This document shows, piece after piece, positions 1,912-47,708 of a stretch of DNA of 64,000 nucleotides. The position numbers were made by a program, and so were the translations under genes. The notes beneath the pieces were generated by a model. That model saw only the letters and a list, made by a program, of their open reading frames with translations. It was not told where the DNA came from and did no database searches. Position 1 is the first letter of the stretch, and each line of letters starts with the position of its first letter. Location of the stretch: the NCBI RefSeq assembly GCF_008033235.1, contig NZ_CP042432.1, positions 3,782,001 to 3,846,000 of the forward strand, in the 5' to 3' direction. The stretch comes from Anseongella ginsenosidimutans (lineage in GTDB: Bacteria > Bacteroidota > Bacteroidia > Sphingobacteriales > Sphingobacteriaceae).

Positions 1912-3084
1912 ATGACAACCCGTTACGAAACGCTCAAGAACAGCCTTCAGACAGAGGAAATGGTGATCAATATGGGTCCTCAGCACCCTTCCACTCATGG
2001 TGTGCTGCGTCTTGAACTCATCACCAACGGGGAAGTCGTCAACGAATGCATCCCTCATATCGGCTACCTGCATCGCTGCTTTGAAAAGCATGCCGAAGCG
2101 CTTAGCTATCCCCAGATCATTCCCTTTACCGACCGGATGGACTACCTGGCGTCTATGAACAACAACCATATTTTTGCAATGGGTGTTGAAAGGATGATGG
2201 GCATTGAGGAAAATATCCCGAAGCGAATTGAATATATCCGGGTACTGGTAGCAGAGATGAACCGGATTGCCTCGCACCTGATCGCCGTGGGGACTTACGG
2301 AATCGATATAGGCGCTTTCACCCCCTTTCTCTGGTGCTTCCGGGACCGGGAACACATTATGGGCCTGCTGGAATGGGCTTCCGGCGCACGCATGCTTTAC
2401 AATTACATATGGGTAGGCGGCTTATTTTATGATCTGCCGGTAGGGTTCGAGGAACGCTGCATCGAATTTGTCGAATATTTCAAGCCCAAACTGAAAGAAC
2501 TCGACATCCTGCTCACGGACAACCAGATATTCATTAACCGCACCGCCGGTATCGGCGTCCTTCCCCTGGATGTTGCTATCAGTTACGGTTGTTCAGGCCC
2601 TATGCTTCGCGGCTCCGGCCTCAAATGGGACCTCCGCCGGGTTGATAATTATTCGGTCTATCCCGAGATAGAATTTGAAATACCCTATGGCAGCGGAGAA
2701 ATGGGAACTACCGGCGACTGCTGGGACCGCTTCAAGGTGCGCATAGACGAAATCAAGGAATCTGTGCTAATTATGGAACAATGCCTTGCCCGGCTTACAA
2801 AAGAACTTAAACGCAGCCCCGATTTTGACCCACGAGCCCTGGTTCCCAAAAAGTGCTTTCCAAAACATAAGGAATATTATATGCGGGGCGAAAGCCCCAA
2901 GGGAGAATTGGGCTTTTATTTCATTGCTCAGGAACGCAGCGAAATCCCCTTTCGCTGTAAAGCCCGCGGCCCCTCTTTCAATAACCTTTCCGTCATTTCC
3001 GAAATTACCCGAGGCGCCATGATCGCCGACGTCGTAGCCATTCTCGGCTCTATTGACATTGTGCTTGGGGAAGTTGACCGGTAA
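1912..3084 (+). CDS. nuoD: NADH-quinone oxidoreductase subunit D
   Basis: This 390-residue protein is the 49-kDa (NuoD) subunit of complex I. It begins with the conserved [17 protein letters not shown] segment, contains [11 protein letters not shown], and ends with the canonical LGEVDR C-terminus. The family derives from the [NiFe]-hydrogenase large subunit, and with NuoB it lines the quinone-binding cavity. The start ATG is preceded by AAAGGAGAAGG, a strong purine-rich site. No insertions or missing blocks are visible. The gene is followed by heptad-repeat DNA instead of nuoE. Confidence 0.95.
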
Positions 3085-3090
3085 TTCCTC

Positions 3091-3240
3091 GTTTTTAGTT
3101 TTTAGTTTATAGTTTTTAGTTTTTAGTTTCCAGTAGCTTGGGTTCTGGGTTGGCAGTTCTTGTTTATAGTTTATAGCTTTCAGGGGCTTGGTTTCAGGGT
3201 CTTCGTTCCTGGGTCGCAGTTCTCGTTTTTAGATTTTAGT
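3091..3240. repeat. GTTTNNA heptad repeat in the spacer after nuoD
   Basis: Six head-to-tail 7-base units occupy 3091-3132 (GTTTTTA, GTTTTTA, GTTTATA, GTTTTTA, GTTTTTA, GTTTCCA). More degenerate units continue around 3161-3177 (GTTTATAGTTTATAG) and 3224-3241. The rest of 3133-3370 holds no convincing gene. The same heptad recurs after ppc (30965 onward). Confidence 0.75.
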
Positions 3241-3901: not shown

Positions 3902-4836
3902 CAAAGTGGAAAGATCAGTTACCGGAATATGAGCCCCGGAAAGATAGCTGGGATAACCTGGAAAGCAGCCTGGATTTCGAACAGCAACTCGGTCGTTCGC
4001 TGGCTGACCTTCCCCGGTATCAACCCCGGGAAGAAAGCTGGAACCGCATCGAGCGTGGTTTAGCACATAGGCGGCGACCTGTCATCCGCTATTTAACCGC
4101 TGCGGCAGCCGCCGCCATATTATTACTTGCCGGAATATTCTTGCTGCCGGAAAAAGACCGCCGGAAGGACAAACCCGGGAAGCAGATCGTACAGCAGCCC
4201 TTCACTCCGTCCTCTCCTGCAGGTAATGTTACGGCCCAACCGAAGGAGGGCGCTGCCGAAGAAACCGCAGGCAGCAACCCGCCCGAACATGAATGGAAGC
4301 CGAAAATGCCGCCGAAGTTCGAACCCGACAGCAGCACACCAGCGCCCCCAGGCAGCAACTCGCCCGAACATGAATGGAAGCCGGAAACCGGCAACACAAA
4401 ACTGGCAACAAGCAGCACACCAGCGCCCGCATCCGGAGATGCTCCAATATCCACCGGGAAGCTGGCAGCCAGAAACTCAAGGGAGCCGGCAACCGGCAGC
4501 GCGCGGGAGAGCGAAACTATTCTAAGCTCTGATGAAAAGACCGCCGAAGCAGCAGAAACACCTGAGCTGCTTGCCGGCTCCGGCATTCAGGGGGAAGTTT
4601 CCGTTTTACGGAATGCCAGCGAGGATCCCTCCGGGTTTCCGCCCATCGCTGCTGATGCAGGATCCAAAGAACAGGCACCCGCCAAAGGCCACCACAGGGT
4701 CATTCGCATACAATGGAAGAAGCAGAAAACCCAGGTAAGCCTTGCCAGCCTTCCGGGAAATTCCCGCCGCCCGCATGAATATTCAGCGGAACAGAAGCAA
4801 CACAACGGAACCACTCTTATCAAAATAGAACTTTAA
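3898..4836 (+). CDS. Putative membrane anti-sigma factor with low-complexity periplasmic region
   Basis: The 312-residue protein has a charged cytoplasmic N-terminus (1-60), one membrane segment at about 64-81 (YLTAAAAAAILLLAGIFLL) and a long Pro/Ser/Glu-rich outer part. The N-terminal part contains two copies of a short motif, YEPRKDSWDNLE (residues 10-21) and YQPREESWNRIE (residues 41-52), which may be the sigma-binding elements. The outer part includes an imperfect 27-residue duplication. It resembles no anti-sigma domain I can name, so the role is inferred from the coupled sigma factor and topology. The small secreted protein downstream may be its sensor or target. Confidence 0.65.
   Translation: MTKWKDQLPEYEPRKDSWDNLESSLDFEQQLGRSLADLPRYQPREESWNRIERGLAHRRRPVIRYLTAAAAAAILLLAGIFLLPEKDRRKDKPGKQIVQQPFTPSSPAGNVTAQPKEGAAEETAGSNPPEHEWKPKMPPKFEPDSSTPAPPGSNSPEHEWKPETGNTKLATSSTPAPASGDAPISTGKLAARNSREPATGSARESETILSSDEKTAEAAETPELLAGSGIQGEVSVLRNASEDPSGFPPIAADAGSKEQAPAKGHHRVIRIQWKKQKTQVSLASLPGNSRRPHEYSAEQKQHNGTTLIKIEL
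4270..4431 (+). repeat. 81-base tandem duplication inside the anti-sigma gene
   Basis: Copy 1 (4270-4350) and copy 2 (4351-4431) both begin GGCAGCAAC and encode 27-residue units starting GSNPPEHEWKP and GSNSPEHEWKP and ending in STPAP plus one or two residues. The copies are in frame and diverge in the middle, so the duplication is not very recent. Confidence 0.75.
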
Positions 4837-28351: not shown

Positions 28352-30949
28352 ATGAACCCCAGTCAGGCTTTGGAAAATTTCAACCAGGATGTTGTTGCCA
28401 AGTACCAGATTTACAATAGCCTGTTCCTGACATTACCATTTAAGGATGTTGCCAATACGGCCGTTATATTACCCTTGCTTGCCAGTCATTGTGAGAATGG
28501 TTTTGAAAAGGGAAAAAATCCAAGGCAGATCATTGATGATTTTTTCAGCCAGCATACAGGGCTGAAAACCGAAAAAGAAAAAATTGACGTTCTCTTCCGT
28601 TTTATCCAGTTCATTGAACGGCAGGTGGTGCTTTTTGATTCCATCGAAGATGCCGCTTTTTCCAATGTGAATGACCTGGAAGGCGTAGGCAGCCTGCGCT
28701 ACCTTTTCACGGAAACCCAGCAAAAAAAACGCGTAGACCAGCTCAAGAATAAGATGGAGGACTTCAAAGTCCGCCTGGTGCTTACCGCTCATCCTACCCA
28801 GTTTTACCCTGGAGCTGTACTTGGCATCATTACCGACCTGGCGCAAGCCATCAAGGAAAATGACCTGACTTCTATTAACCTGCTCCTTCAGCAATTGGGC
28901 AAGACACCTTTTTTCAAAAAGGAACAGCCTACGCCCTATGATGAAGCGATAAGCCTTATTTGGTACCTGGAGAATATTTTTTACAAGGCGATCGGCAATA
29001 TTTACAGGGAAATAAAATCGCATATGCCCGAAGACGGCGAAAGCGTAACCGTGAACAATATTTTTGACCTTGGTTTCTGGCCGGGCGGCGACCGGGACGG
29101 CAATCCTTACGTGGACGCCGAAACCTCCCTGCGCGTAGCCGACAGCCTCCGCGTGGCCGTACTGAAATGCTATAGCCGCGATCTGCGCCGGCTCAGAAGA
29201 AGGCTGACCTTCAACCAGGTTGACAAAGTAATTGGCGAGCTGGAAGAAAAGATGTACGACATTTCTTTCCTGCAGAAAGACCCCTCCATCCTCCCGACAG
29301 ACGAGCTGTTTCAAAAGCTGCTGGAGATACGGGACATTGTCATAAGACAGCATAATTCCCTGTTCATAGATCAGCTGGACAGCCTCATCAGCAAAGTAAG
29401 GCTGTTCGGTTATCATTTTGCTACGCTGGATATACGCCAGGACAGCCGGGTACATCACCAGGTGTTGCTGAACATCATCCGGCAGTATAAAAAGAACACA
29501 GGCAATGACCTGCTGCCCCCGGATTTTGCCGAATTACCTTCGGGACAGCAAATTGAGTTACTGAGTAAGGTGGAAGGCAAACTGAATCCGGATATCTTTG
29601 ATGATAAGATCACCCGCGACACCCTTGAATCCATTTACGCGATCAAGACCATCCAGGAAAAGAACGGGGAGCGCGGGGCCAACCGGTACGTAATCAGCAA
29701 TTGCCAGAGTGTGCTGAATGTCATGGAGATATACGCCATGATCCGCTTATGCGGCTGGAGCCGGGAAGAAGTAAAAATTGATATTATCCCGCTGTTTGAA
29801 ACCATCGACGACCTGGTGAATGCGCCGGACATCATGGAAGAGTTATACCGGAATCCATACTATGCCGAACATCTTCGCCGCAGGGGTAACCGGCAAACGA
29901 TCATGCTCGGTTTTTCCGACGGCACCAAGGACGGCGGATACCTGATGGCCAACTGGTCTATTTATAAAGCGAAAGAGGCATTATCGGCGGTATCATACAA
30001 ATATGGCATTAAAGTGTCGTTTTTCGACGGACGGGGCGGCCCTCCTGCCCGCGGCGGCGGAAAAACTCATAAGTTTTACTCCTCGCTGGGTACGGAAATC
30101 GAAACCGCCGAGATCCAGCTCACCGTACAGGGGCAGACCATCAGCTCCAATTTCGGCACGATTGAATCGGCGCGCTTTAACATGGAACAGCTCCTTACCG
30201 CCGGTATCTCCAATGAATTATTCGCTGACACCAAGTACCAGCTTAGCGACGAAGACAAAAATCTGCTTCAGGAGCTGGGCGACCTGGCATACGACTCCTA
30301 TAAGGAACTAAAAGCTCATCCGAAATTCATCGAATACCTGGTAAGGGTAGGTACGCTGAAATACTATGGGAAAACCAATATCGGCAGCCGCCCTACCAGC
30401 CGCAAAAAATCAGACGTTTTCCGCTTCGAAGATCTGCGCGCCATTCCTTTCGTCGGCTCCTGGAGCCAGCTGAAACAAAATGTACCCGGCTTTTACGGGG
30501 TGGGCACCGCCTTGTCCCGGTTCGAGGAAATGGGGAAAATGGATGCAGCCAGGCGCTTGTACAAAAAATCCGAATTCTTCCGGACGCTCATTGATAACAG
30601 CATGATGTCCATGTCAAAATCCTATTTCCCCCTTACCCATTACCTGGAAAAGGATCCCGAGTTCGGCGAATTCTGGAAGAAATTGTACAGCGAATTTAAG
30701 CTCACGAAAAAATATCTGCTCGACGTTTCCGGCTCAGATGAATTAATGGACAGTTATCCCGTAGAAAGAGCGTCCATCAAAATCCGGGAAAGGATTGTGC
30801 TGCCCCTGCTCACTATTCAGCAGTATGCACTTAACCGTCTCCACGAACTCGAAAACAATGATCAGGACCCTGAATTACGGGCAACGTACGAGAAAATGGT
30901 AACCCGTTCGCTCTACGGCAATATCAACGCCGCGCGGAATTCAGCTTAA
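28352..30949 (+). CDS. ppc: Phosphoenolpyruvate carboxylase
   Basis: The 865-residue enzyme forms oxaloacetate from phosphoenolpyruvate and bicarbonate, refilling the citric acid cycle. Signature segments are VLTAHPTQFYPG (catalytic histidine near residue 149), GFWPGGDRDGNPYV, MLGFSDGTKDGGYL and the glycine-rich FFDGRGGPPARGGGKTH. The length is in the usual range. The start ATG at 28352 is followed at once by conserved sequence. No terminator is visible downstream; instead the spacer is filled with heptad repeats. The gene stands alone. Confidence 0.95.
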   Translation: MNPSQALENFNQDVVAKYQIYNSLFLTLPFKDVANTAVILPLLASHCENGFEKGKNPRQIIDDFFSQHTGLKTEKEKIDVLFRFIQFIERQVVLFDSIEDAAFSNVNDLEGVGSLRYLFTETQQKKRVDQLKNKMEDFKVRLVLTAHPTQFYPGAVLGIITDLAQAIKENDLTSINLLLQQLGKTPFFKKEQPTPYDEAISLIWYLENIFYKAIGNIYREIKSHMPEDGESVTVNNIFDLGFWPGGDRDGNPYVDAETSLRVADSLRVAVLKCYSRDLRRLRRRLTFNQVDKVIGELEEKMYDISFLQKDPSILPTDELFQKLLEIRDIVIRQHNSLFIDQLDSLISKVRLFGYHFATLDIRQDSRVHHQVLLNIIRQYKKNTGNDLLPPDFAELPSGQQIELLSKVEGKLNPDIFDDKITRDTLESIYAIKTIQEKNGERGANRYVISNCQSVLNVMEIYAMIRLCGWSREEVKIDIIPLFETIDDLVNAPDIMEELYRNPYYAEHLRRRGNRQTIMLGFSDGTKDGGYLMANWSIYKAKEALSAVSYKYGIKVSFFDGRGGPPARGGGKTHKFYSSLGTEIETAEIQLTVQGQTISSNFGTIESARFNMEQLLTAGISNELFADTKYQLSDEDKNLLQELGDLAYDSYKELKAHPKFIEYLVRVGTLKYYGKTNIGSRPTSRKKSDVFRFEDLRAIPFVGSWSQLKQNVPGFYGVGTALSRFEEMGKMDAARRLYKKSEFFRTLIDNSMMSMSKSYFPLTHYLEKDPEFGEFWKKLYSEFKLTKKYLLDVSGSDELMDSYPVERASIKIRERIVLPLLTIQQYALNRLHELENNDQDPELRATYEKMVTRSLYGNINAARNSA

Positions 30950-30964
30950 TGTTGCTTTGCAACG

Positions 30965-31602
30965 GTTTAAAGTTTATAGTTTAAGGTTTTTAGGTTATAG
31001 TCTCTAGTTTAGAAGTCACAGTTTATAGTTTGGGGTTTAAGTTTGTAGCTTCGAGTTTTTTATTAGCGCTTATAGTTTCGAGCTTAAAGCATCTACCTTA
31101 AGTCTTCTAGTTTGGACTTTTTAGCTTTAGGCTTAAATTTTTAATTATTGGTTCGTTGTTGATGGCCATAGTCATTAGCTCGGCCTTTTTAGTCATTGCT
31201 TCAAGTTTAGTTAGTTTCTGAAGTTTTGGCACTAGTATTCAACTCGCTTCTCGTTTGTCATTAATGGTTAGTTTGAGTTTTTGCTATTTCTTTTTTGGTG
31301 GTTTGCACAAGCTTGTTGGTGGTTTGCGCAGGCTTAGACAAAAGCCCAGGCATGCAATTTCGAAGGTTGAATCCGGAGAACTCCTAAACACCCGGTAAAC
31401 GTTAGGATTTGGTTCCAAAGGCAGAACCCAAAAACCCTTACAAACTACAAACTAAACAACCCAATAAAACAAATTCCGAAGGCAGAACCCAAAAACCCTA
31501 AAAACTACAAACTACAAACTACAAACTAAACAACCCAATAAAACAAATTCCGAAGGACGAACCCAAAAACCCTAAAAACTATAAACTACAAACTATAAAC
31601 TG
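30965..31602. repeat. Heptad-repeat spacer with opposite orientation at its two ends
   Basis: The left part (from 30965) is built of GTTTNNA units (GTTTAAA, GTTTATA, GTTTAAG, GTTTTTA and more) that decay towards 31250. The right part (to 31602) is built of the complementary unit (AAACTATAAACTACAAACTATAAAC). The spacer between ppc and the SAM riboswitch therefore has inverted ends and holds no convincing gene over more than 600 bases. Two near-copies of TTGGTGGTTTGC also occur near 31296-31326. Confidence 0.75.
31441..31588. repeat. Two tandem 74-base repeats
   Basis: Copy 1 (31441-31514) and copy 2 (31515-31588) both begin CAAACTACAAACTAAACAAC and contain AATTCCGAAGG and ACCCAAAAACCCTA. They differ at a few bases. 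A partial third copy (TTCCAAAGGCAGAACCC) precedes them at about 31413-31440. Function unknown. Confidence 0.8.
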
Positions 31603-31616
31603 ATTACATTAATTGA

Positions 31617-31648
31617 TTTGCAAAAGCTGGTAAAGGTCTGTACCTTTG
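31617..31648 (+). promoter_or_regulatory. Promoter of the SAM riboswitch / hom transcript
   Basis: TTTG (31617-31620), a 20-base spacer and TACCTTTG (31641-31648) make a near-ideal Bacteroidota promoter. Transcription should start around 31655, shortly before the riboswitch. Confidence 0.75.
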
Positions 31649-31671: not shown

Positions 31672-31776
31672 CACTTATCCAGAAAGACCGAGGGACAGGC
31701 CCGTTGACGTCTTAGCAACCCTTCCAGGCGGCATAATAATGCCGGGGAAAAGGTGCTAACTCCTGACAGATAAGTT
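31672..31776 (+). promoter_or_regulatory. SAM-I (S-box) riboswitch aptamer
   Basis: The terminal P1 helix pairs ACTTATC (31673-31679) with GATAAGT (31769-31775). Between them are the S-box consensus blocks GAGGGACAGGCCC, TTAGCAACCC and AAAGGTGCTAACTCC. S-adenosylmethionine binding should stabilise P1 and allow the terminator at 31813 to form, turning hom off when SAM is plentiful. Confidence 0.92.
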
Positions 31777-46380: not shown

Positions 46381-47708
46381 AAGTATTCATCAACGGGCAG
46401 GTTTTCGATGGGAAAACATTTAGCGCAGATACCTGGGTATGGGTGGACAAGGGCGAAATAGTGCGTACAACGCCCGCCCGGACAGGCCTTCCGGGGGGCG
46501 CAGAACCGGCAGGCCGGGTTGATGCCAATGGCGGGCAGGGCGCTGCGGGCAGGGCCGGCGACGCAGAACCGGCAGGCCCGGTTGCCAATGGCGGACAGGG
46601 CGCTGCGGGCGGGGCCGGCGACGGTCATTCATATACAGCCGGTGATGTGCCGGGCGACGTCCCCGAAGTTATTGACCTGCAGGGAAATTACCTGGTTCCC
46701 GGGCTCATTGACCTTCATGTGATGGGCGGTTCCGGCATTTATTTTTCCAATGAACCTACTGCGGAGGCCGTTGAAAGTATTTCGGGCGCTCATTTAAGGT
46801 ACGGGGTCACTTCCTGGCTGCCAACGCTCATTACTGCGCCGCCGGAAACGATCTTTAAGTCTATTTCAGCTGTCCGGCAAGCCATGCAGCGCCTGCCGGG
46901 GAACGTACTGGGGATGCACCTGGAAGGCCCCTTCCTTCATCCGGAAAAACGCGGGGCGCACAAGGAAGTACTCCTGCGCAAACCGGATGACGCGCTCCTG
47001 GATGATATCATTTCGGAAGGAAAAGACGTCATACGCGTCATTACCATTGCCCCGGAGCTTTTCACCGAGCGCCAGCTGGAGAAACTGCTCGAAAGCGGCA
47101 TGCGGGTAGCGGTAGCGCACTCCATGGTCGGATGCCGGGAAGCCATGCACTATTTCGACAAAGGGATCGGACTGGTTACCCATCTTTATAATGCCATGCG
47201 GCAATTCAACAGCCGCGAACCCGGCCTTGTTGGCGCGGCGTTCACCCATCCTTCCATCAGGGCGGCCATTATCGCTGACGGGGTGCATGTGGATTTCGAA
47301 GCGGTAAAGATCGCCCAGCGCCTCCTGAAAGACCGCCTGTATCTTGTTTCGGACTGCACCTTCATCGATTACCCGTTTGATCATTTCGAATTTGAAGGAG
47401 TGACCGTATACAACAAGGATGGGAAGTTCATTAACGAAGAAGGAAAACTTGCCGGCTCCTCCATCACCGTCTATCATGCTATAAAGAATTGCGTAGAACA
47501 GGGTGTCTGTACCCTGGAAGAAGCGCTGGCTAAAGCCACTTCCATTCCCGCATCTATTATGCAGATGGAAACCCGCATAGGGGTCATACAGGAAGGAGCC
47601 AGGGCCAACCTGCTGGTACTGGACAAAGACCTTCAAAGGAAACAGCAGTGGCTCAACGGCCTGCCCGTAAACCAGGGCGACAACCTTCATGTAACTTCCG
47701 GGAATTGA
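46377..47708 (+). CDS. nagA: N-acetylglucosamine-6-phosphate deacetylase with a repeat insertion
   Basis: The 443-residue enzyme removes acetate from GlcNAc-6-phosphate in amino-sugar and cell-wall recycling. It shows the amidohydrolase entry VPGLIDLHVMGGSG, the metal site GMHLEGPFLHPEKRGAHK, and the histidines in VAVAHSMVGC and GLVTHLYNAM and DGVHVDF. A Gly/Ala-rich insertion of about 50 residues (residues 32-85) breaks the small N-terminal beta domain and contains a 20-21 residue tandem repeat. The core is otherwise complete. The start overlaps the PolX stop (ATGA) and its own stop overlaps the next start, so the three genes are coupled. Confidence 0.9.
   Translation: MKVFINGQVFDGKTFSADTWVWVDKGEIVRTTPARTGLPGGAEPAGRVDANGGQGAAGRAGDAEPAGPVANGGQGAAGGAGDGHSYTAGDVPGDVPEVIDLQGNYLVPGLIDLHVMGGSGIYFSNEPTAEAVESISGAHLRYGVTSWLPTLITAPPETIFKSISAVRQAMQRLPGNVLGMHLEGPFLHPEKRGAHKEVLLRKPDDALLDDIISEGKDVIRVITIAPELFTERQLEKLLESGMRVAVAHSMVGCREAMHYFDKGIGLVTHLYNAMRQFNSREPGLVGAAFTHPSIRAAIIADGVHVDFEAVKIAQRLLKDRLYLVSDCTFIDYPFDHFEFEGVTVYNKDGKFINEEGKLAGSSITVYHAIKNCVEQGVCTLEEALAKATSIPASIMQMETRIGVIQEGARANLLVLDKDLQRKQQWLNGLPVNQGDNLHVTSGN
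46500..46622 (+). repeat. In-frame tandem repeat (63 + 60 bases) inside nagA
   Basis: Copy 1 (46500-46562) and copy 2 (46563-46622) both start GCAGAACCGGCAGGCC and end GGGCCGGCGAC. They encode AEPAGRVDANGGQGAAGRAGD and a one-residue-shorter version. The GC content is far above the neighbouring DNA. Confidence 0.85.

What the first reader, a model, noticed from the sequence alone, without database searches (positions are those of the whole stretch)
30965..31602. Heptad arrays in opposite orientation flank a 600-base spacer containing 74-base tandem repeats
The left end is GTTTNNA and the right end is its complement, so the spacer has long imperfect inverted termini. Inside are two and a partial third copy of a 74-base unit. 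This resembles a degenerate mobile or structural element, yet no transposase is present.
Basis: seen in the sequence. Interest (0 to 1): 0.55.

Follow-up and report, generated by a model that had tools for sequence, protein, structure and literature searches.

The report
Head-to-head heptad repeats filling gene gaps
This stretch is one of at least 45 gaps between genes in this Bacteroidota genome that have filled with 7-letter repeats pointing inward from the neighbouring genes; a sister species lacks the ones that could be compared, and how such one-way repeats arise is unknown.

Summary
GTTTNNA heptads on the left and complementary TNNAAAC heptads on the right fill the gap between the PEP carboxylase stop codon (30949) and the promoter and SAM riboswitch of homoserine dehydrogenase; tandem units of 61, 74 and 53 bp form the right part. 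It is not a lone mobile element: I found 45 such gaps in the genome. In all 26 with runs on both sides, GTTT runs lie left and AAAC runs right (177 of 177 run pairs), whatever the gene directions; none of the 45 is divergent. A same-genus relative has 4-71 bp where this genome has 87-1233 bp, at 16 of 16 gaps where both flanks aligned. No shared core, matched arms or target duplications were found, and no Y1 transposase. Rehm et al. 2015 described this architecture for G-rich heptads in Xanthomonas and Nostoc; here the heptads are AT-rich without G-runs, so quadruplexes cannot be its general cause. Best reading: a lineage-specific heptad satellite growing inward from gene edges, stopped by selection at stop codons and promoters. 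The growth mechanism is inferred; 3'-end extension fits the polarity. New variant of a known kind.

The parts
28352..30949 (+). Phosphoenolpyruvate carboxylase gene; its stop codon (TAA) is the left boundary
   Evidence: PF00311, E 7e-145; ends at the same residue in L119
30951..30963 (+). Hairpin unit GTTGCTTTGCAAC, two heptads long and in register with the array
   Evidence: GTTGCTTYGCAACNGTTT occurs 22+34 times in the genome, reversed control 0/0
30965..31031 (+). Left heptad array (GTTTNNA), clear part
   Evidence: TRF, heptad scan
31032..31250 (+). Decaying heptads; period-7 signal significant over 30960-31250 as a whole, not over 31130-31250 alone
31251..31412 (.). Centre with no listed match elsewhere in the genome; contains a 21-bp tandem duplication at 31295-31335
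31413..31473 (-). Tandem unit 1 (61 bp)
31474..31547 (-). Tandem unit 2 (74 bp), with TNNAAAC heptads at 31499-31526
31548..31600 (-). Tandem unit 3 (53 bp, partial), ends in TNNAAAC heptads at 31573-31600
31617..31648 (+). Match to the Bacteroidota promoter consensus TTTG...TAnnTTTG (consensus recalled); homology with the relative resumes here
   Evidence: sequence; conserved in L119
31672..31776 (+). SAM riboswitch (RF00162)
   Evidence: 67.9 bits; also in L119
31868..33124 (+). Homoserine dehydrogenase gene
   Evidence: PF00742, E 2e-48
3091..3132 (+). Second member in the window: one-sided GTTTNNA array 6 bases after the stop codon at 3084

Best explanation
The spacer is one member of a lineage-specific, genome-wide family of intergenic heptad arrays (heptameric simple sequence repeats). 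Shown here: GTTTNNA heptads start at or overlap the edge of a gene and point inward from both sides of the gap; they are most decayed toward the middle; the blocks are absent from a same-genus relative at every gap where both flanks could be aligned. Inferred: the arrays grow in 7-nt steps (and by local tandem duplication, which made the 61/74/53-bp units) on the strand whose 3' end faces the gap, each side independently, and purifying selection stops them at stop codons and promoters. Effects on neighbouring genes, if any, are secondary. What makes growth one-directional is the least supported step; extension of 3' ends exposed at breaks or gaps, followed by joining, is the mechanism I think most likely.
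For: Polarity 26 of 26 two-sided gaps, 177 of 177 run pairs. Arms independent, as separate growth from each side predicts. 16 of 16 comparable gaps are compact in the relative and its 234-kb sample has no arrays of period 4-15 in gaps; the heptad pattern is near absent from 35 other genomes of the family. Heptad coverage falls from 0.56 at the edge to about 0.1 at 240-300 nt (the first bin is inflated because it starts at a unit). Arrays overlap stop codons: TAG at 31 of 63 array edges against 47 of 197 in a 240-kb sample (p 2e-4), and at L069, L070, L076 and L081 the array or its hairpin encodes the last residues or the stop of the called ORF, as expected if growth is limited by selection. 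The same polarity in G037, another family (4 of 4 two-sided gaps, 16 runs against 2), and in print for Xanthomonas and Nostoc (PMC4692102).
Against: No growth event was observed. G026, a genome of the same family with many heptad arrays, shows no polarity by G-skew (16 inward, 13 outward, 6 without skew). That crude measure is also weak in the 240-kb sample of the own genome (4 inward, 2 outward, 4 without skew, all from one gap). Hairpins near stop edges (12 of 63) but not start edges (0 of 27; though at L092 gap 2444 a hairpin sits just upstream of the start codon in the alignment) hint at a function at 3' ends. Gain here rather than loss in the relative is parsimony only; no outgroup has this gene pair among the 80 loci fetched.
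Confidence: 0.5

Rival explanations
1. Selected insulators or terminators: the arrays end transcription between tightly packed genes. U-rich trailers with the GTTGCTTCGCAAC hairpin act after stop codons, head-to-head arrays fold in RNA read either way, and A-rich, G-poor leaders suit translation on the start side; polarity would be the sum of two constraints.
For: Hairpin within about 25 nt at 12 of 63 stop edges and 0 of 27 start edges. The window RNA folds better than all 20 shuffles (z -3.35). In Xanthomonas, transcripts start or stop more often at quadruplex-forming heptads than at control repeats (PMC4692102, section 15).
Against: Arms are not matched within a locus (p 0.78; p 0.87). Canonical terminators are not commoner at array edges (5 of 63) than at array-free edges (16 of 123). 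One-sided arrays in tandem gaps lie on the stop side in 10 of 14 cases here but on the start side in 6 of 7 in G037 (my tally), so the function would have to differ between genomes. Rehm et al. found no role in gene regulation.
Confidence: 0.25
2. Neutral replication slippage with no polar cause of growth: heptads arise in either orientation and outward-pointing ones are lost because they harm leaders or trailers.
For: Heptads are the commonest long simple repeats in many bacteria and a 7-nt polymerase footprint was proposed to favour slippage (Mrazek et al. 2007, not read; as reported in PMC4679880 and PMC4692102, passages read). Period 7 and its double 14 are nearly the only periods in gaps of G026 (18 of 203) and G037 (16 of 180).
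Against: Not one of 177 run pairs is outward, in convergent as in tandem gaps; I know of no trailer constraint that strict.
Confidence: 0.15
3. A degenerate mobile element (MITE, or REP-like palindrome moved by a RAYT) with inverted heptad ends.
For: Sharp presence/absence boundaries; inverted arrangement; small palindromes repeated over the genome; a 7-bp word TTTGCAA flanks the window block, but its left copy is part of the hairpin unit.
Against: No shared core in the listed matches, lengths 67-2218 bp, one-sided members (19 of 45), arms not matched, no excess of flanking duplications (p 0.51), no Y1 transposase. Other transposase families were not searched.
Confidence: 0.05
4. RNA-templated, telomerase-like addition by a dedicated reverse transcriptase.
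For: The inward strand is the 3'-ended strand on both sides, as at telomeres. Bacterial RTs that synthesise tandem-repeat DNA exist (DRT10, PMC12632851, abstract, first part of the text and passages).
Against: The RVT_1 matches in the genome are five equal-scoring copies of a group II intron RT and one retron-VI-like RT; no UG17 RT seen. G026 and G037 carry several unrelated heptads per genome, not one template.
Confidence: 0.05

Closest known systems
G-rich heptameric repeats GGGAATC (Xanthomonas) and GGGGA(C/T)T (Nostoc), Rehm et al. 2015, PMC4692102 (abstract, sections 15 and 16, passages of others read)
   Same: 7-nt unit, mostly intergenic; sense strand just after stop codons and antisense strand just before ORFs, that is, inward from gene edges; some overlap the stop codon; convergent pairs in Xanthomonas; few in divergent gaps; function unknown
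   Different: Here the unit is AT-rich, with no run of two or more G in the consensus, so no quadruplex; two-sided blocks of up to about 2 kb; palindromic hairpin units in heptad register; absent at the compared sites of a same-genus relative, whereas 83% of Xcc repeats were shared with Xac
TAACTGA direct repeats of Beggiatoaceae, cyanobacteria and some Bacteroidetes, MacGregor 2015, PMC4679880 (passages read)
   Same: Intergenic heptamers, lineage-specific; some Bacteroidetes gaps also hold other heptamers and are shorter without repeats in a close relative
   Different: Fixed sequence, mostly just upstream of start codons; no head-to-head pairs described in the passages read
REP/BIME elements with RAYT (recalled)
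   Same: Small palindromes near 3' ends of genes, often inverted
   Different: No Y1 transposase in the genome; the bulk of each block is heptads
DRT10, a telomerase-like defence reverse transcriptase, PMC12632851 (first part and passages read)
   Same: Adds short tandem DNA repeats
   Different: No UG17 RT among the RVT_1 matches; no template RNA was sought

Membership tests
Intergenic heptameric repeats with gene-edge polarity (Rehm et al. kind) | 7-nt unit in tandem, mainly between genes | tested here: met
Intergenic heptameric repeats with gene-edge polarity (Rehm et al. kind) | Inward polarity from gene edges, independent of gene direction | tested here: met
   26 of 26 two-sided gaps, 177 of 177 pairs
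Intergenic heptameric repeats with gene-edge polarity (Rehm et al. kind) | Under-represented in divergent gaps; overlap with stop codons | tested here: met
   0 of 45 divergent against 36 of 162 gaps; TAG overlap
Intergenic heptameric repeats with gene-edge polarity (Rehm et al. kind) | G-quadruplex-forming unit (runs of at least 3 G) | tested here: not met
   Unit GTTTNNA has no G-run; hence a variant of the kind, not the same family
Intergenic heptameric repeats with gene-edge polarity (Rehm et al. kind) | Preference for four units | not tested
   Unit-number histogram not made
MITE / element with terminal inverted repeats | Matched terminal inverted repeats | tested here: not met
   Same-locus arms no more alike than cross-locus arms
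MITE / element with terminal inverted repeats | Target-site duplications | tested here: not met
   16 junctions, mean shared word 4.8 same-locus and 4.8 cross-locus, p 0.51
MITE / element with terminal inverted repeats | Shared core sequence and size | tested here: not met
   (capped list)
REP with RAYT | RAYT (Y1) transposase in the genome | tested here: not met
   PF01797: no match in the genome, control rings in 5 of 14 genomes
DRT10 / telomerase-like RT | UG17-type RT in the genome | tested here: not met
   Six RVT_1 matches: five equal-scoring, the one examined (L201) a group II intron RT (TIGR04416 405.7 bits, over its cut-off; PADLOC UG17 model only 151 bits), one retron-VI-like
DRT10 / telomerase-like RT | ncRNA with complementary repeat template | not tested
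   No search made

The most novel reading that the evidence does not exclude
Bacteria have a polar repeat-adding activity that extends 3' ends exposed at breaks between genes with 7-nt repeats, as telomerase does at chromosome ends, before the ends are rejoined; inward heptad arrays in Bacteroidota, Xanthomonas and Nostoc would be its scars, with the unit sequence set by the lineage.
Probability: 0.1. Interest if true: 0.85.

Novelty: new variant of a known kind. Interest (0 to 1): 0.5.

Why it matters
In Xanthomonas and Nostoc the inward polarity of heptad repeats has been discussed in terms of G-quadruplexes. Here the same architecture appears in another phylum with AT-rich heptads that have no G-runs, so its cause must be more general: either a polar way of making repeats or a constraint common to gene edges. 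A complete genome with at least 45 such gaps beside a same-genus relative without them gives base-precise before/after junctions, which makes the question of how these repeats are born directly testable.

Tried and rejected
Rejected or disfavoured: a MITE with terminal inverted repeats; REP/RAYT; foldback copying of one arm (arms independent); canonical terminators as the point of the arrays (5 of 63 array edges, 16 of 123 others, 10 of 315 shuffled); a purely 3'-UTR feature (the stop/start bias reverses in G037, my tally). Led nowhere: outgroup polarity at this locus (PEPC lies beside homoserine dehydrogenase only in L119 of the 80 loci fetched); G-skew polarity in G026; literature on Bacteroidota heptads (searches listed no paper on GTTTNNA arrays; only titles and abstract starts were seen for most hits, and the library lacks most subscription journals).

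Dropped or incomplete: of the 43 own-genome stretches fetched, five (L061, L074, L079, L100, L103) gave no gap with at least 4 in-array heptads and are not among the 45. One search lists only about the first 100 of its 157 places and one search scored 40 of 78 candidates, so 45 is a lower bound. Gene edges come from my own ORF caller, which mis-calls some starts and misses some genes. Of 20 flank pairs queried in G001, L086 (two gaps), L087 and L099 gave no match and L092 gap 7210 aligned on one side only. At L071 the own gap of 951 bp includes a called 172-aa ORF with no match in the relative's locus. One search did not include G001.

Full report
What is there. The gap between the phosphoenolpyruvate carboxylase gene (stop at 30949) and the homoserine dehydrogenase gene (31868) begins one base after the stop codon with a hairpin, GTTGCTTTGCAAC, and runs on as GTTTNNA heptads that lose register toward the middle. 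On the right, tandem units of 61, 74 and 53 bp (31413-31600) carry TNNAAAC heptads, the complement. About 15 bases further lies a match to the Bacteroidota promoter consensus (recalled), then a SAM riboswitch at 31672-31776.

It is a genome-wide family. The window is part of a 4.32-Mb single-contig genome. Three consecutive GTTTNNA occur 157 times against 10 for the reversed pattern. The hairpin followed by NGTTT occurs 56 times against 0; the hairpin followed by a heptad and a further GTT was found in 1 of 295 genomes of the class, this one. I fetched 43 stretches round arrays; with the window they hold 45 gaps with at least 4 in-array heptads, a lower bound because one search lists only part of its places.

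Strict polarity. In the 26 gaps with runs of at least three relaxed heptads on both sides, every GTTT run lies left of every AAAC run, 177 of 177 pairs; 13 of these gaps are convergent and 13 tandem. None of the 45 gaps is divergent, against 36 of 162 gaps of at least 20 bp in a contiguous 240-kb sample plus the window (p about 1e-5). Left and right arms of one gap are no more alike than arms of different gaps, by alignment (p 0.78) or duplex energy (p 0.87). That argues against transposon ends, foldback copying and selection for a matched stem. The window RNA does fold better than 20 of 20 shuffles (z -3.35), as a head-to-head array would.

Before and after. The closest named relative found is a metagenome-assembled genome labelled Anseongella ginsenosidimutans (L119, 87% identical homoserine dehydrogenase; genus in Sphingobacteriaceae), so the organism is probably an Anseongella (inference). 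In L119 the PEPC stop is followed at once by the homoserine dehydrogenase promoter: 4 bp between aligned flanks where the window has 667. Three array-free gaps near by are of similar length in both (132 and 169, 482 and 336, 253 and 178 bp; from the ORFs). I queried 20 pairs of flanks in the same-genus genome G001 (probably the same MAG; not verified). Sixteen loci matched; at 15 both flanks aligned to one place. These 15 and the window locus have 4-71 bp between aligned flanks in the relative and 87-1233 bp here. A 234-kb sample of G001 has no array of any period from 4 to 15 in its 92 gaps. The pattern is near absent from the 35 other genomes of the family searched (at most 1 forward and 5 reverse places), so gain in this lineage is likelier than loss in the relative, although no outgroup settles it at this locus.

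Where arrays stop. Arrays often begin inside the stop codon: TAG makes up 31 of 63 array edges against 47 of 197 stops in the 240-kb sample (Fisher p 2e-4). Of 24 edges compared with the relative, 6 have TAG here and not there and 3 the reverse; the relative itself has TAG at 9 of 24, against 35 of 165 in its sample. At L069, L070, L076 and L081 the array or its hairpin encodes the last residues or the stop of the called ORF. I read this as growth up to a limit set by selection rather than recognition of stop codons. Heptad coverage falls from 0.56 at the first unit to about 0.1 at 240-300 nt (the first bin is inflated because it starts at a unit). Hairpins lie within about 25 nt of 12 of 63 stop edges and 0 of 27 called start edges, with one near a real start at L092.

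Beyond this genome. Period 7 and its double are nearly the only array periods in gaps of samples of G026 (period 7 in 18 of 203 gaps) and G037 (16 of 180). In G037, another family of the class, GTTT-type runs show the same polarity: 4 of 4 two-sided gaps, 16 runs in the expected half and 2 not; by G-skew, 15 segments inward and 3 outward. In G026 the motifs are mixed and G-skew shows no polarity (16 inward, 13 outward, 6 without skew); at least one of its gaps contains a missed gene. One-sided arrays in tandem gaps lie on the stop side in 10 of 14 cases here but on the start side in 6 of 7 in G037 (my tally), so what is constant is position in the gap, not transcription.

What is known. Rehm et al. 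2015 (PMC4692102; abstract, sections 15 and 16, and passages of other sections read) describe G-rich heptads in Xanthomonas and Nostoc with the same placement and orientation, convergent pairs in Xanthomonas and rarity in divergent gaps; function was left open. MacGregor 2015 (PMC4679880, passages read) describes TAACTGA heptamers and reports the proposal that 7 nt reflects a polymerase footprint. The arrays here are of that kind, but AT-rich and without G-runs. My searches listed no paper on GTTTNNA arrays, in a library that lacks many journals.

Mechanism. Growth in one direction from each gap edge, independent on the two sides, is what extension of the 3' end on each side of a break, followed by joining, would leave: the inward strand is the 3'-ended strand on both sides, as at telomeres. 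Bacterial RTs that add tandem repeats exist (DRT10, PMC12632851, first part and passages read), but the RVT_1 matches here are five equal-scoring copies of a group II intron RT and one retron-VI-like RT, so slippage by an ordinary polymerase is the simpler agent. The rival that polarity reflects selection on leaders and trailers, with the arrays as insulators, remains open; canonical terminators do not decide it (5 of 63 array edges, 16 of 123 others).

Verdict. Real, recurrent, probably gained since the split from the relative, and strictly polar: a new variant of a known but unexplained kind of bacterial repeat.

Noticed in passing
31672-31776: SAM riboswitch (RF00162) leading the homoserine dehydrogenase gene, kept in the relative (L119 4807-4911).
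   Followed up: partly
L201-L205 (own genome, about 0.807, 1.489, 1.990, 3.899 and 3.984 Mb): Five equal-scoring copies of a group II intron reverse transcriptase (490-aa frame); intron RNA domains confirmed by Rfam in L201 only.
   Followed up: partly
L206 1339-2488: Retron-VI-like reverse transcriptase beside an XRE-type regulator gene, next to an integrase-like ORF (integrase label from reading the ORF, not tested).
   Followed up: partly
4268-4428 and 46499-46623: Tandem duplications of 81 and 60 bp lying inside called ORFs.
   Followed up: no
L093 2466-4683 (own genome about 3,269,765-3,271,982): The longest array gap seen, 2.2 kb with 31 in-array TNNAAAC heptads; one search places an ORF or two inside it, so it may be more than one gap.
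   Followed up: no
L219-L238 (G026): A genome of the same family whose gaps hold several unrelated heptads (TGGACAG, AAAGTCA, GGCTGAT, GAGATGT) without clear polarity.
   Followed up: partly
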